Assembly (NCBI GenBank): GCA_017525015.1
Contig: JAFXUK010000003.1
Location: 1-64,000, forward strand
Direction: 5' to 3'
DNA length: 64,000 nucleotides
Source of the DNA: Bacilli bacterium
GTDB taxonomy: Bacteria; Bacillota; Bacilli; RF39; UBA660
The position numbers were made by a program, and so were the translations under genes. Each line of letters begins with the position of its first letter. Positions within the stretch are counted from its first letter, which is position 1. Below, one piece after another: positions 5,602 to 10,038 of the stretch. The notes under the pieces are model-generated. The model was not told where the DNA came from. It worked only from the letters and a program-made list of their open reading frames with translations, and did not search any database.

Positions 5602-6303
5602 CTAATAATTAACTAGTACAGATTCAATATTTTCTACTGTACTTAATTTTTCTACTTCAATTAAGTTTTCTACTGTATGTTTATCTACTACTTTATATTT
5701 TAGCATTATATCTAATGCTTGTAGATTTGCATCATTAACACCAATTTTTTGATTAATAATCTTTTCATTTAATGAAATAACTTCTTGGAATGGTTTTACA
5801 AAGTTATTTGCATAGCCTGATAGTACTGGTGATTTATTAAGCATGTATTGAACACAAACACTATTTTTAAATATATCCATATTACCAAAAGGTATCATTA
5901 AAAACATAAATACAATAAATAGAATTAAATATCCTTTTAATAGAGATACAATTCCTCCTAAGATCTTAGATGGTAACCATAAAATAATAGTTGCATTAAC
6001 AACTTTTTGTAAGAATTTTGATACTCTTAATGAGAATTCATAAATACTCATCATTACAGCAAATACTATAATAAATGCTAAAAATTGATATATAAAAATA
6101 TTCATTGTAACAAATCCATCTAAATCAAAGAATGGTAAAAACATACAAAGAATATTACCTATAATTCCTTTTAATGAGAAGGATAATACAAAGACTAAAA
6201 TAATCGCTACTAAACTAACTGCCTCTTTGATAACTCCCCTTTTTAATCCTACAATTAGAAACATTATTAATACTAGAATAATTCCAATATCAAATATATT
6301 CAT
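5602..6303 (-). CDS. CvpA family membrane protein
   Basis: A 233-residue protein with four predicted membrane helices in the first 165 residues, then a cytosolic helical tail. The start (MNIFDIGIILVLIMFLIVG) and the following Lys-Arg-Gly-turn before the second helix are typical of the CvpA/colicin V production family. These proteins are widespread in Bacilli and their role is unsettled; links to purine regulation, envelope stress and DNA repair have been proposed. It is the first gene of an operon with trxA and two zinc-ribbon genes. A TATAAT at 6328-6333 on the minus strand is the likely promoter, back to back with the promoter of the plus-strand operon. Confidence 0.7.
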   Translation of the reverse strand: MNIFDIGIILVLIMFLIVGLKRGVIKEAVSLVAIILVFVLSFSLKGIIGNILCMFLPFFDLDGFVTMNIFIYQFLAFIIVFAVMMSIYEFSLRVSKFLQKVVNATIILWLPSKILGGIVSLLKGYLILFIVFMFLMIPFGNMDIFKNSVCVQYMLNKSPVLSGYANNFVKPFQEVISLNEKIINQKIGVNDANLQALDIMLKYKVVDKHTVENLIEVEKLSTVENIESVLVNY

Positions 6304-6351
6304 AAAATCACTCCTATTCTTATATTCATTATAAACTATTTATAAAAAATA

Positions 6352-6360
6352 TGCTATAAT
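6352..6360 (+). promoter_or_regulatory. Extended -10 promoter of the mTERF-like operon
   Basis: TGC-TATAAT is an extended -10 element; no good -35 is visible. It lies 18 bases before the chosen ATG, so the leader is very short but contains the TAGGTGAT ribosome site. Confidence 0.55.
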
Positions 6361-6378
6361 ATTTTGTAGGTGATAGCT

Positions 6379-7539
6379 ATGTTAGATGAATATATGAAAA
6401 ACTTAGGTTATCAAGAAGAAGAAATGGAGTTTATTTTATCTTCTTATCAGTTGAGTAAAGAAACAGAATCTACTCTTCTATATAAGATAAAATCTCTAGT
6501 TAATTATCTTCATAGAAATGGTCTTGATAATGCTGCTATTATTAATATAACTACTACTATTCCAAATATAATTGTTGAAAGTATAGAAAACATTAAAGTA
6601 AGAATTAATGAATTATTAGGATTTGGTTTTAATAAATTAGAAGTATTTAAAATGATTGAGAATTATCCTTATATTTTAGAGATGTCTAATCAAAGAATTA
6701 ATAATAAATATCAAGTGCTTGAAGAGATTGGTTTTAGTAAAGATGATTGTAATGAATTATTTGTTAAGAAAACTGATATTTTAAATAAAGATCCTTCTTC
6801 TATAAAGAAAAAAATAGAGTTCTTTTTAGAATATGGATATGATAAAAATGATATTATTACGATACTTAGAGAAATACCAATATTATTTGATATGACTCAA
6901 TTACAAATAACTAAGAAATTAGAAGAATATAAAGAATTTGGTTTTACTGAAGATGAGATTATTAAGATTACTACATATCTTCCTGATTTATATATTTATA
7001 ATAAAGAAGATATTACTTCTAAGACTAAATATTTAACTGAGAATGGTTATACTACTAAAAATATTATTAATGCTATTAAGAAATTACCTATTATTTTAAA
7101 ACATAATAATTTATCTAAAATTGAAGAAAATATTGAGAATTTAGAAAACTTAGGCTTTGGTATATCAGAAATAGTTCCTTTAACTGAAAAGAATCCTTAT
7201 ATTCTACTCTATTCTAAAGATATGATTTCTGATAATTTTAAATGTTGTATTAAATATAATTTATTTAATAATGAAGTTATTAAGATGATGAATGAAACTC
7301 CTTTATTACTTACTTATAATAAAAAAGAATTAGATAAGAGATTACATTATTATAAAGATAAAAATTTAATTGATATTATTAAAAATAATAGTAATTATTT
7401 ACTTATAAGTTTAGAGTTAATTGAAAATAGAGAGAAATATATTAAAACTAAAAATAAAGCAGATGTTTTCTTATCTGATAAAGAGTTTTATAATAAATAT
7501 AAAGTAAATAGAGATGATATTTTAAAGGGGGTTAAATAA
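6379..7539 (+). CDS. mTERF-like helical-repeat protein (about 8 repeats of 35 residues)
   Basis: A 386-residue, strongly helical protein made of tandem repeats. The pattern is a helix starting with Ile/Lys, a Gly-Phe/Tyr turn, then D/E-E-I-I and a short segment with a Pro followed by aliphatic residues. The key Pro is at residues 62, 97, 167, 202, 237, 273 and 308 (Thr at 132), giving near-perfect 35-residue phasing. This matches the mTERF repeat known mainly from nucleic-acid-binding proteins of mitochondria and chloroplasts. The last 60 residues diverge. The start is ATG 6379, with TAGGTGAT 5 bases upstream. Its stop overlaps the next start (TAATG), and RNase HIII follows. Nucleic-acid binding is inferred from the fold resemblance only. 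Confidence 0.7.
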   Translation: MLDEYMKNLGYQEEEMEFILSSYQLSKETESTLLYKIKSLVNYLHRNGLDNAAIINITTTIPNIIVESIENIKVRINELLGFGFNKLEVFKMIENYPYILEMSNQRINNKYQVLEEIGFSKDDCNELFVKKTDILNKDPSSIKKKIEFFLEYGYDKNDIITILREIPILFDMTQLQITKKLEEYKEFGFTEDEIIKITTYLPDLYIYNKEDITSKTKYLTENGYTTKNIINAIKKLPIILKHNNLSKIEENIENLENLGFGISEIVPLTEKNPYILLYSKDMISDNFKCCIKYNLFNNEVIKMMNETPLLLTYNKKELDKRLHYYKDKNLIDIIKNNSNYLLISLELIENREKYIKTKNKADVFLSDKEFYNKYKVNRDDILKGVK

Positions 7540-7928
7540 TGGATGTCTTAATTAGATATGGGTTTTCTATGGAAGAGATTAAAAACATGATGGAGAATAA
7601 CGAAGAAATAGAAGGTATAGAAGATAACTCTATCTATGAAATAATTGATATTTTAGGAAGTGTTGGTTGTTTAAGTAATCATATTAAGAATATCTTTTAT
7701 TCAAACCCTTATGTATTATCTAGAAATCCAAAAGATATAAAGAAATTAATTGATTCTTTAAAATCTATTGGACTTACTCATTTAGAAGTATTATTTGATA
7801 GTAATCCATATTTATTAAATATTGGAGAAAAAGAAATTAAAAGAATAAAAAAACAAAAAGAAAAAGAAGGATTAGATGAGTGTGATATAAAAGACTACTT
7901 TTATTATAATTCTCACGAGATCTTTTAG
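7539..7928 (+). CDS. Short mTERF-like repeat protein
   Basis: A 129-residue protein with about three of the same repeats as the preceding gene: an RYGFSMEEI segment at 6-14, then two full units with SNPYVL (Pro57) and SNPYLL (Pro90), followed by a charged Lys/Glu tail. The ATG overlaps the upstream TAA by one base, so translation is coupled. It could be a split-off C-terminal piece of a longer ancestral repeat protein, or a partner that extends the repeat solenoid. The AGGAGGA before rnhC begins right at its stop. Confidence 0.6.
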   Translation: MDVLIRYGFSMEEIKNMMENNEEIEGIEDNSIYEIIDILGSVGCLSNHIKNIFYSNPYVLSRNPKDIKKLIDSLKSIGLTHLEVLFDSNPYLLNIGEKEIKRIKKQKEKEGLDECDIKDYFYYNSHEIF

Positions 7929-7937
7929 GAGGATAAC

Positions 7938-8849
7938 ATGAACGTAGTTATAAAAGTTAATGATGAAATTAAAGAAAAAATGATTGAATACTACAAAGAT
8001 AAAATGAGAGATAAAGTGATTCCTTATGTAGTATTTCAAGCACAAGAAGAAGATACTGTAATTACTCTATATGAGTCAGGTAAATGTATGTTTCAAGGAA
8101 CTAGTGCTGATGTAGATGCTGCTATGTGGGGTACTGCATTAGAGAATACTAAACAGAGACAAGAAGAAAAGAAAAAAGAAGATGAAAAGTATTTTAATGC
8201 TAGTGCTGTTGGATCAGATGAAGTTGGGACTGGAGATTACTTTGGACCTATTGTTGTTACGGCATGTTTTGTTCCTAAAGAAGATATTGAATTCTTAAAG
8301 AGCTTAGGAGTTGGAGATTCTAAGAAAATAGAAGATGATAAAATCTTAAAAATTGCTCCTCAAATTGCTAAAAGAGTTAAATATAAAAGTGTTATTTTAA
8401 CTAATAAAGAATATAATGAAAAATATAATAAAGATGTTAATATGAATAAGATTAAAGCTATTATGCATAATAAGGTTTTATATCAATTAATACAAGAAGA
8501 AAAACCTAAATTTAATTATATTATTGTTGATGAATTTGCTAGAGAAGCTAGATATTATGAATATTTATCTGATCAACCTGCTATACAAAAAGGTATTACT
8601 TTCTTAACTAAAGCTGAAGATAAGAATCTTGCTGTTGGATGTGCATCTATTATTAGTAGATACTTATTCTTAAAAGAATTTGATAAGATGTGTGATTCTA
8701 TTCATATTCCTCTTCCTAAGGGAGCTGGAAAAGATGTGGATGAGATTGGTGAAGAAGTAGTTGAAAAGTTTGGAGAAGAAAAACTACAGGAAATTGCTAA
8801 AGTAAACTTTAAAAATACTGATAGAATATTACATACTATGATTTATTAA
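7938..8849 (+). CDS. rnhC: Ribonuclease HIII
   Basis: A 303-residue enzyme that cleaves the RNA strand of RNA:DNA hybrids such as R-loops and Okazaki primers. Residues 1-70 form the TBP-like N-terminal substrate-binding domain typical of RNase HIII. The catalytic domain opens with GSDEVGTGDYFGP, giving Asp94 and Glu95, and continues with IIVDEF (Asp198) and KAEDKN (Asp228), the full metal-binding set. The length matches the Firmicutes family. It is the last gene of the operon with the two mTERF-like genes, preceded by AGGAGG and followed by a strong terminator. Confidence 0.95.
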   Translation: MNVVIKVNDEIKEKMIEYYKDKMRDKVIPYVVFQAQEEDTVITLYESGKCMFQGTSADVDAAMWGTALENTKQRQEEKKKEDEKYFNASAVGSDEVGTGDYFGPIVVTACFVPKEDIEFLKSLGVGDSKKIEDDKILKIAPQIAKRVKYKSVILTNKEYNEKYNKDVNMNKIKAIMHNKVLYQLIQEEKPKFNYIIVDEFAREARYYEYLSDQPAIQKGITFLTKAEDKNLAVGCASIISRYLFLKEFDKMCDSIHIPLPKGAGKDVDEIGEEVVEKFGEEKLQEIAKVNFKNTDRILHTMIY

Positions 8850-8869
8850 AAAGACGAAAGTCTTTTTTT
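8848..8869 (+). terminator. Terminator after rnhC
   Basis: A stem of AAAAGAC with GTCTTTT, GAAA loop and a T-run immediately after the rnhC stop codon. Confidence 0.8.
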
Positions 8870-8870
8870 C

Positions 8871-8899
8871 TTGTATTTATTTGTACTCAGTATTATAAT
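8871..8899 (+). promoter_or_regulatory. SigA-type promoter of the 8926-9540 gene
   Basis: TTGTAT (8871-8876), a 17-base spacer and TATAAT (8894-8899), starting directly after the rnhC terminator. Confidence 0.65.
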
Positions 8900-8925
8900 A
8901 ATAAGCATATTTTTGGAGGGATTTT

Positions 8926-9540
8926 ATGAAAATCGAAAACGTTTATGCAGTGTTAGATGAACTTGAAATACTTCATCCTAGAAAAGCTAAAAGATTACAT
9001 ACTTTAATTGAGAACTATGAATTAGAAGAAGACGAAGATAAAAAGAAAAAAAGATGGAATAGAATTCGTAATTACATCTATGGAATATTTAGAAGTTGCT
9101 TAACTAGAGAATGTAGAAAAGAACTTGAAAATACTAGTATTCTTATTAGTGAAGAGTCTTATACTTTAGAAGAACAAGTTAAGAACGGATGGTTAATCTT
9201 TACTGATGGTGCTAGAAGACTTTCTAGTGAACCTAATGAAACATATTCTAATTTTATTCCTAGAGAATATAAGAAAGGATTCTATCTACAAAAACATGAT
9301 TATTCTAATGAGAATGAAAAGCAAAAATTCTTAGATGAATTAAAGTTCTTAACTAATAATAAGATTATGTTAGGATATCTTTCTGATTTAATGGATAGAA
9401 AACAAGAAATAATTACTTATGATTTTGAAGTTAATAATGAAGCTATTCCTAGAAAATTTGTTGAATTATTAATTACTACTTTAGGATATGTAAGAATACC
9501 AAATAAAGAAAAAGAAGAAAATAATAATAAAGCAAAATAA
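8926..9540 (+). CDS. Uncharacterised soluble protein
   Basis: A 204-residue protein I do not recognise. It has no signal peptide or membrane segment. Residues 1-75 look helical and highly charged, with a KKKKRW basic patch at about 39-44 and two Cys near 59-64. The middle (about 75-125) has a mixed alpha/beta character with several aromatic residues, and the C-terminal part is helical with a Lys/Glu/Asn-rich tail. A GGAGGG ribosome site precedes the ATG, and the gene is monocistronic. The basic patch could contact nucleic acid, but that is speculation. Confidence 0.55.
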   Translation: MKIENVYAVLDELEILHPRKAKRLHTLIENYELEEDEDKKKKRWNRIRNYIYGIFRSCLTRECRKELENTSILISEESYTLEEQVKNGWLIFTDGARRLSSEPNETYSNFIPREYKKGFYLQKHDYSNENEKQKFLDELKFLTNNKIMLGYLSDLMDRKQEIITYDFEVNNEAIPRKFVELLITTLGYVRIPNKEKEENNNKAK

Positions 9541-9568
9541 AAAGTTAGGTTTTTACCTAACTTTTTTT
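9541..9568. terminator. Bidirectional terminator between convergent genes
   Basis: A 10-bp perfect stem (AAAGTTAGGT with ACCTAACTTT) and T4 loop with a T-run on both strands serves the plus-strand 8926 gene and the minus-strand folA, whose last codons lie inside it. Confidence 0.85.
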
Positions 9569-10038
9569 CTTGTATAAACTAATCTTTTATAAGATATATT
9601 ATTTTCCTCATATTCCCCTATTGTTTTAGATTCCCAATCTTCTTTATTAAATTCTGGAAAGTAGGCATCTGCTTCGCTTTCAGCATCTATTTCAGTTAAA
9701 ATCATTTTATTTGAATAATCAATTAATTCTTTATAGACACTTGCTCCACCTATTACATATACTTCAGGATACTCTTTTATTCTTTCTAATAATTCATCAA
9801 TACTATGTACTACTAGAACTGTAGGATCTAACTCTATATTTCTTCTTGTTAGAACTATATGTTGTCTTCCTGGTAAAAGGCCTGGAAGTGAGTCATATGT
9901 CTTCATTCCCATTATTATAGGTTTACCCATAGTTTCATTCTTAAAGAAGCTCATATCCTCTTTAAAATGCCAAATAAGCTTGTTATCTTTACCTAGCTCT
10001 AAGTTTTTGCCTATGGCTGCGATCATTGTCATATTCAT
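9553..10038 (-). CDS. folA: Dihydrofolate reductase
   Basis: A 161-residue enzyme reducing dihydrofolate to tetrahydrofolate with NADPH, which recycles the folate oxidised by ThyA. Typical segments are visible: IAAIGKNLELGKDNKLIW at the N-terminus, a helix with the substrate-binding acidic residue (KEDMSFF), MGMKTYDSL, and YVIGGASVY for NADPH binding. The length is normal. The ATG lies 1 base after the thyA stop, so thyA-folA is a coupled operon. Two in-frame Met codons follow within five residues, so the exact start is uncertain by a few codons. Confidence 0.95.
   Translation of the reverse strand: MNMTMIAAIGKNLELGKDNKLIWHFKEDMSFFKNETMGKPIIMGMKTYDSLPGLLPGRQHIVLTRRNIELDPTVLVVHSIDELLERIKEYPEVYVIGGASVYKELIDYSNKMILTEIDAESEADAYFPEFNKEDWESKTIGEYEENNISYKRLVYTRKKVR

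What the first reader, a model, noticed from the sequence alone, without database searches (positions are those of the whole stretch)
6379..7928. Two bacterial mTERF-like repeat proteins
The first protein has a Pro at residues 62, 97, 167, 202, 237, 273 and 308, an almost exact 35-residue phasing, within a helix-turn-helix repeat that looks like the mTERF unit. mTERF proteins are known mainly from eukaryotic organelles, where they bind nucleic acid and affect transcription or translation. A long and a short copy are encoded in a coupled pair here.
Basis: partly seen in the sequence, partly recalled or inferred. Interest (0 to 1): 0.72.

Follow-up and report, generated by a model that had tools for sequence, protein, structure and literature searches.

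The report
Bacterial mTERF pair in rnhC operon
An uncultured bacterium with gut relatives carries true kin of the mTERF proteins known from mitochondria and chloroplasts, one long and one short and acidic, built into the operon of an enzyme that removes RNA-DNA hybrids, which offers a simple setting to ask what this fold does in bacteria.

Summary
L (6379-7539, 386 aa) and S (7539-7928, 129 aa) both match PF02536 (3.1e-36 and 3.5e-8). The confident AlphaFold2 model of L matches human MTERF1 and MTERF3 best. L-S-rnhC (RNase HIII) is one tightly packed unit. In the window's genus 32 of 39 genomes carry L, and in all 32 loci S and rnhC follow. The 30 L sequences compared from this locus fall together (100/100). 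One species has cleanly lost L-S while keeping promoter and rnhC. L tends to bear K/R at one helix-3 position of each repeat, as does the wider bacterial family; S lacks it (1 of 93) and is acidic. S is therefore not a short copy but a different, probably protein-binding, partner. Best reading: L is a nucleic-acid-binding, probably dsDNA-binding, solenoid tuned by S and co-expressed with RNase HIII; the roadblock/R-loop role is inference. Prokaryotic mTERF-like proteins (pTERF) were published in 2024 (PMC11417379), so this is a new variant of a known kind.

The parts
6379..7539 (+). L: long mTERF protein, 386 aa; N-cap (about res. 1-50), eight repeats of about 35 residues, C-cap (res. 314-386, nt 7318-7536)
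   Evidence: PF02536 3.1e-36; AF2 pLDDT 92.7, pTM 0.76; PDB matches
7539..7928 (+). S: short acidic mTERF-fold protein, 129 aa, about 3.5 repeats
7938..8849 (+). rnhC: RNase HIII (RNase_HII domain + DUF3378), next gene of the same unit
   Evidence: PF01351 4.2e-41, PF11858 1.1e-19; follows S in 32 of 32 loci of the genus (some cut by contig edges, and in L059 a short frame of 180 aa)
6352..6360 (+). extended -10 promoter element TGCTATAAT ahead of L
   Evidence: found in 30 of 32 loci of the genus, the other two (L055, L058) being cut by a contig edge; directly ahead of rnhC in G016, which lacks L-S. Promoter function is inferred from the sequence
6328..6333 (-). -10 box (TATAAT on the minus strand) of the divergent cvpA gene, next to the promoter of L
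   Evidence: read from the sequence; seen in the slices
6368..6373 (+). ribosome-binding site AGGTGA of L
   Evidence: sequence
5602..6303 (-). cvpA-like gene, divergent neighbour that marks the insertion site (neighbour, not part of the system)
   Evidence: PF02674 4e-16; present in 29 of 32 loci, the other 3 (L052, L055, L058) ending at a contig edge

Best explanation
L is a genuine bacterial member of the mTERF superfamily: a superhelix of three-helix, proline-capped repeats, with an N-cap and a C-cap, that binds nucleic acid (most likely double-stranded DNA) in its concave face. S is a short, acidic protein of the same fold that lacks the basic ladder; it most likely binds L (or its groove) and tunes or releases it. 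The L-S module was inserted once, in the ancestor of this genus, between the rnhC promoter and rnhC, and has since been inherited with it. Shown: family, predicted fold, gene order, conservation, common descent of the L proteins of this locus, ladder in L, its absence in S. Inferred: co-transcription, DNA binding by L, binding of S to L, and the cellular role. Proposed role: L parks on specific chromosomal sites as a roadblock for RNA polymerase or the replication fork (as MTERF1 does in mitochondria), and co-expressed RNase HIII removes the RNA-DNA hybrids that form at stalled complexes.
For: Family and fold: (A1 profile vs MTERF3 9.1e-21, MTERF1 1.1e-17); profile-profile match to 25 plant mTERFs, E 5.5e-20 over 311 columns. 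C-cap: L vs plant C-terminus scores 25.8 (E 1.5e-4, probability 52%), 100 column shuffles reached at most 15.4. Ladder: 71% K/R at P+13 over 8 repeats x 30 L proteins against 12.8% overall; 0 of 2,000 column shuffles reached it; 87% of 91 proline-bearing repeats in 19 other bacterial family members. S: K/R at P+13 in 1 of 93. Operon: 32 of 32. The 30 L rows fall together, 100/100, against 18 other bacterial and 6 plant rows. G016's rnhC lies inside the group of L-S-bearing genomes (95/95; its own fork 86/84), so its lack of L-S is a loss. In 7 of 9 genomes of other genera read, rnhC faces cvpA directly, and none of the 9 has L-S there. Published pTERF1 and pTERF2 bind DNA; pTERF1 Kd 1.87 nM (PMC11417379).
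Against: No binding data for L or S. L as a whole is not basic (mean net charge -1.7, range -14 to +17). The ladder fails in repeats 6 and 7 of the window's L (E and N), and in repeat 6 only 10% of the 30 rows have K/R. No such ladder was found at that offset in plant repeats (2% of 83). L-S was lost in G016 with rnhC kept, so RNase HIII does not need it. Other L/S modules of the family lie near unrelated core genes (era, recO, pheS, ssb, xseB, relA), so the rnhC link may be hitch-hiking on a good promoter. MTERF4 and ciliate mS93, parts of mitoribosome entries, show that the fold also serves outside DNA binding.
Confidence: 0.6

Rival explanations
1. L binds RNA, not DNA: a ribosome-assembly or RNA-stabilising factor like MTERF4 or the plant mTERFs that act on introns and transcripts; S is a cofactor.
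For: MTERF4 and mitoribosomal mS93 are among the sequence and fold matches; other family members sit by era, pheS and relA, genes of translation or its control.
Against: The published bacterial relatives, the pTERFs, bind dsDNA with nM affinity; the best PDB matches of L by fold are DNA-bound MTERF1 entries; the neighbours include at least as many DNA genes (rnhC, ssb, xseB, recO).
Confidence: 0.25
2. L-S are sequence-specific regulators of ordinary promoters (local repressor or activator), placed by rnhC only because they were inserted behind a good promoter.
For: L/S modules appear at many unrelated sites in the family; G016 lost L-S but kept promoter and rnhC.
Against: The position ahead of rnhC was kept in 32 of 32 genomes although the L proteins have drifted to as little as 31% identity to the window's, which passive hitch-hiking explains less well.
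Confidence: 0.3
3. The bacterial mTERFs came from a eukaryote by gene transfer and were re-expanded in this bacterial lineage (a question of origin, compatible with any of the functions).
For: Patchy in bacteria: 9 of 392 genomes of the phylum, only 2 over the cut-off, one of them the window's nearest genome and the other of its family; 0 of 14 control genomes. PF02536 is wide in eukaryotes (recalled).
Against: The tree cannot be rooted: plant branch 2.24 changes per column; many bacterial repeats are more regular than the eukaryotic ones; other bacterial phyla were not sampled.
Confidence: 0.35
4. Chance repeat resemblance or eukaryotic contamination of the assemblies.
For: The named relatives are metagenome assemblies, and G001 is given 8% contamination.
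Against: Gene order with bacterial promoter-like and ribosome-binding sites and rnhC in 32 genomes; purifying selection; E 3.1e-36 to Pfam.
Confidence: 0.01

Closest known systems
pTERF, prokaryotic mTERF-like proteins (PMC11417379, NAR 2024)
   Same: Repeat proteins from bacterial MAGs, most of them Bacillota, with annotated mTERF motifs, three-helix units and a predicted alpha solenoid
   Different: pTERF1 is said to lack the conserved proline and hydrophobic heptads and to be 9-18% identical to eukaryotic mTERFs; L keeps the proline in 7 of 8 repeats and finds PDB mTERFs by plain sequence search. The section read mentions no short partner and no operon.
Human MTERF1 / MTERF3 (PF02536)
   Same: Repeat unit, proline cap, fold; K/R at P+13 in 3 of the 6 MTERF1 repeats that I could read by eye
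   Different: No organelle; more regular spacing of repeats; separate short acidic partner; arginine is the commonest residue of L at none of the offsets P-2, P+1 and P+9 where, by my count, four of MTERF1's five base-reading arginines sit (R162, R202, R251, R350; the fifth, R387, was not placed; PMC4705650, passages)
Plant organellar mTERFs
   Same: Profile match over 311 columns including the C-terminal segment, where the window and P0028 share the letters SDKEF
   Different: Spacing of repeats and loops; no K/R ladder at P+13; many plant members act on RNA (titles and abstract starts)
TALE / BurrH DNA-binding repeat proteins
   Different: Two-helix repeats with a base-specifying loop (recalled); lower Z than every listed chain of MTERF1, 3 and 4

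Membership tests
mTERF (PF02536) | Pfam gathering score | tested here: met
   L 125.3 bits, S 33.2 bits, cut-off 23.1
mTERF (PF02536) | Three-helix repeat with a conserved proline | tested here: met
   proline in 65-100% of 29 rows in each of 8 repeats of L; helix order H1-Pro-H2-H3 in the model
mTERF (PF02536) | Superhelix like MTERF1/3/4 | tested here: met
   top matches are mTERF chains; for S Foldseek alone is weak (best E 4.5e-3)
mTERF (PF02536) | Basic nucleic-acid-binding concave groove | tested here: inconclusive
   K/R ladder at P+13 in L, not in S; no coordinates or electrostatics available
mTERF (PF02536) | Binds DNA or RNA | not testable with these tools
   needs a binding assay
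pTERF (Bacillota mTERF-like DNA-binding proteins) | Sequence homology to pTERF1/2 | not testable with these tools
TALE-like repeat proteins | Two-helix repeat with base-specifying loop (recalled) | tested here: not met
   Predicted units of L have three helices and a proline cap

The most novel reading that the evidence does not exclude
A bacterial chromosome-barrier system of three parts: L is a site-specific mTERF clamp, S an acidic mTERF-fold anti-clamp that mimics nucleic acid or caps L, and RNase HIII the clean-up enzyme, together controlling transcription or replication stalling; and this bacterial family is the source, or an acquired offshoot, of the organellar mTERFs.
Probability: 0.15. 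Interest if true: 0.85.

Novelty: new variant of a known kind. Interest (0 to 1): 0.6.

Why it matters
mTERFs are described mainly as organelle proteins, and the 2024 pTERF paper says that no evidence of a prokaryotic homologue was known before it. Here is a bacterial clade whose kinship to organellar mTERFs shows in plain sequence search, kept across a genus in one unit with RNase HIII and with an acidic partner of the same fold. That gives a small system in which the job of mTERFs (roadblock, R-loop control, RNA binding) can be tested in E. coli or B. subtilis, and a way to ask the direction of transfer between bacteria and eukaryotes.

Tried and rejected
Single-protein scan of genome contigs found no relative; with the tighter alignment A2 it found 4 named MAGs. 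No relative in viral contigs (A2), in phages for L or in plasmids for P0027; S was not searched there. PADLOC gave no family for L or S at E <= 1 and only weak ones for P0027 and the 8926 protein (E 0.1 or more), so a known defence role is not supported. NCBIfam gave no family for L and only a sub-threshold DfrA8 match for S (12.6 bits, cut-off 325). The P+13 ladder was not found at that offset in plant repeats (2% of 83; nearby offsets 9 and 16 have 47-49%). No natural L+S fusion was seen in the loci read; the 606-aa frame listed for G033 C11 corresponds to two genes, S and L. Looking at the intergenic region for an L-binding motif showed only conserved overlapping promoters, kept also in G016 without L-S. 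Co-absence of L-S and rnhC in six genomes of the genus (G015, G017, G018, G026, G035, G039) was considered as a functional link and set aside: cvpA was not found in those genomes either (G026 and G016 also show a weak rnhC-like match elsewhere, E 1.9e-4 and 3.6e-4), and four of the six are under 90% complete. Rows dropped: partial L of G027 and G030 and the S fragment of G030; G001, identical to the window, is represented by it; P0017 and paralogues from other loci (L050, L061, L068) were left out of the charge counts. Literature searches; pTERF together with mTERF (from 2023) gave one paper.

Full report
Observation. L (6379-7539) and S (7539-7928) are intact overlapping ORFs. Both genes are under purifying selection.

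Relation to eukaryotic mTERFs. Searching the large protein set with A1 listed 14 proteins, one of them from a plant (P0028, E 1.6e-19, 98% coverage). A profile of 25 plant mTERFs, picked from the 120 listed relatives of P0028, aligns with A1 over 311 columns, E 5.5e-20. The C-terminal caps alone align with score 25.8 (E 1.5e-4, probability 52%), while 100 column-shuffled controls stayed at or below 15.4. Shared descent of the architecture is thus likely but rests on profiles. The direction of transfer is open: in the tree the plant branch is very long and the root is only a midpoint.

Setting. L, S and rnhC overlap or nearly touch; a promoter-like extended -10 element (TGCTATAAT, 6352-6360) lies ahead of L, facing the cvpA promoter. 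In the genus the A1 profile finds L in 32 of 39 genomes; in all 32 loci S and rnhC follow (L is cut by a contig edge in G027 and G030; L059's rnhC is a short frame), cvpA lies upstream in 29, the other 3 ending at contig edges, and the -10 element is there in 30, the other 2 being cut. The 30 complete L proteins compared fall together with support 100/100 against 18 other bacterial and 6 plant rows. In seven of nine genomes of other genera whose rnhC was read, rnhC faces cvpA directly (L111-L117); of the other two, G043 has cvpA with a further gene between and G047 shows none nearby; none of the nine has L-S there. In G016, of the same genus, cvpA and rnhC are neighbours with the promoter kept and no L-S, and its rnhC lies inside the group of L-S-bearing genomes (group 95/95, its own fork 86/84, bootstrap not fully settled). 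So L-S probably entered the rnhC unit once and was lost at least once. The other six genomes of the genus without L gave no rnhC ortholog and no cvpA match; I draw nothing from them.

The wider family. Of 196 relatives 41 match PF02536; in the order 53 of 385 genomes match (41 over the cut-off); in the phylum sample 9 of 392, 2 over the cut-off, one of them G001 itself and the other in its family; 0 of 14 control genomes. I read loci outside the rnhC site that I chose from these hits. 21 had an ORF matching my L or S profile; leaving out three with 95-aa frames at 18-21 bits (L125, L127, L129) and one 1138-aa frame (L137), 17 remain, of which 8 hold an S-like gene, 7 of them with L-like genes in the same row and one (L130) alone on a short contig. 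Four further chosen loci (L124, L126, L128, L138) gave no match with my profiles. Neighbours confirmed by Pfam include SSB, exonuclease VII small subunit, RelA/SpoT, a phenylalanyl-tRNA synthetase subunit, an Era-like GTPase with KH domain, and RecO. P0019 is a natural fusion of cytidylate kinase with a mTERF solenoid.

Anatomy and mechanism. In human MTERF1 the conserved prolines line the major groove, and the base-reading arginines R162, R202, R251, R350 and R387 are named in PMC4705650 (passages read); counting by eye in the alignment puts the first four at P-2, P+1, P+9 and P+1 of their repeats. In L the residues at P-3 to P+1 differ from repeat to repeat, and some are kept across the genus (K-K at P-3/P-2 of repeat 6, Y at P+1 of repeats 2 and 7), as a conserved target would want; arginine is not the commonest residue at P-2, P+1 or P+9 in any repeat. 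Many repeats also carry K/R at P+13: 71% over 8 repeats and 30 proteins, against 12.8% overall, never reached in 2,000 column shuffles, and 87% of 91 repeats in the wider bacterial family; repeat 6 is an exception (10%). S has K/R there in 1 of 93 cells, acidic residues at P+9 (58-97%) and at P-3 of two of its three repeats, and a mean net charge of -9.4 over 31 sequences. I therefore read L as the nucleic-acid-binding member and S as a protein partner that may cap L or mimic its ligand. Published pTERF1 and pTERF2 bind dsDNA (pTERF1 Kd 1.87 nM; section 53 of PMC11417379 read), which favours DNA. The step from there to a roadblock with RNase HIII as clean-up is inference from MTERF1 (roadblock termination is mentioned in PMC4705650) and from the gene order; that RnhC removes hybrids in B. 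subtilis I take from abstract starts in the listing.

Prior work. Among the papers listed I saw no other title or abstract start that reports bacterial mTERF-like proteins besides the pTERF paper. It states that pTERF1 lacks the conserved proline and hydrophobic pattern; L has the proline. I could not compare sequences. Host: four named relatives are MAGs titled Bacilli or Bacillales, two of them from sheep ileum and goat duodenum and one with the isolate name Lapin; no finer name was established for the window.

Verdict. A real, strongly supported bacterial mTERF pair; the family claim is settled, nucleic-acid binding likely, cellular role open. New variant of a known kind.

Noticed in passing
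P0019 (588 aa): Natural fusion of cytidylate kinase (PF02224, 3e-71) with a mTERF solenoid (PF02536, 1.1e-38); its C-terminus is nearly that of P0027.
   Followed up: partly
L135:4529-9389: mTERF array (L, S, L, L) lodged between an era-like gene and recO; other arrays or single genes beside pheS (L133), ssb (L050), xseB (L070) and relA/spoT (L132).
   Followed up: partly
L137:346-3762 (G394) and G466 C62: Very long frames (1138 aa; 746 aa) with weak mTERF matches, perhaps large repeat proteins of a related kind.
   Followed up: no
window 6328-6360: Closely spaced divergent promoter elements of cvpA and of the L-S-rnhC unit; TGCTATAAT was found in 30 of 32 loci of the genus.
   Followed up: partly
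window 8926-9540: Unknown 204-aa protein after rnhC, found in 6 of 32 loci of the genus and in G016, fast evolving, no Pfam family.
   Followed up: no
window 6001-10000: GC skew flips sign over the L-S-rnhC-8926 block, which lies on the strand opposite to the other listed genes of 1-14 kb, so it may be transcribed head-on to replication.
   Followed up: no
[not shown]
   Followed up: no
L131: Single mTERF gene two genes away from a C5 cytosine DNA methylase (PF00145), in what looks like an accessory region.
   Followed up: no
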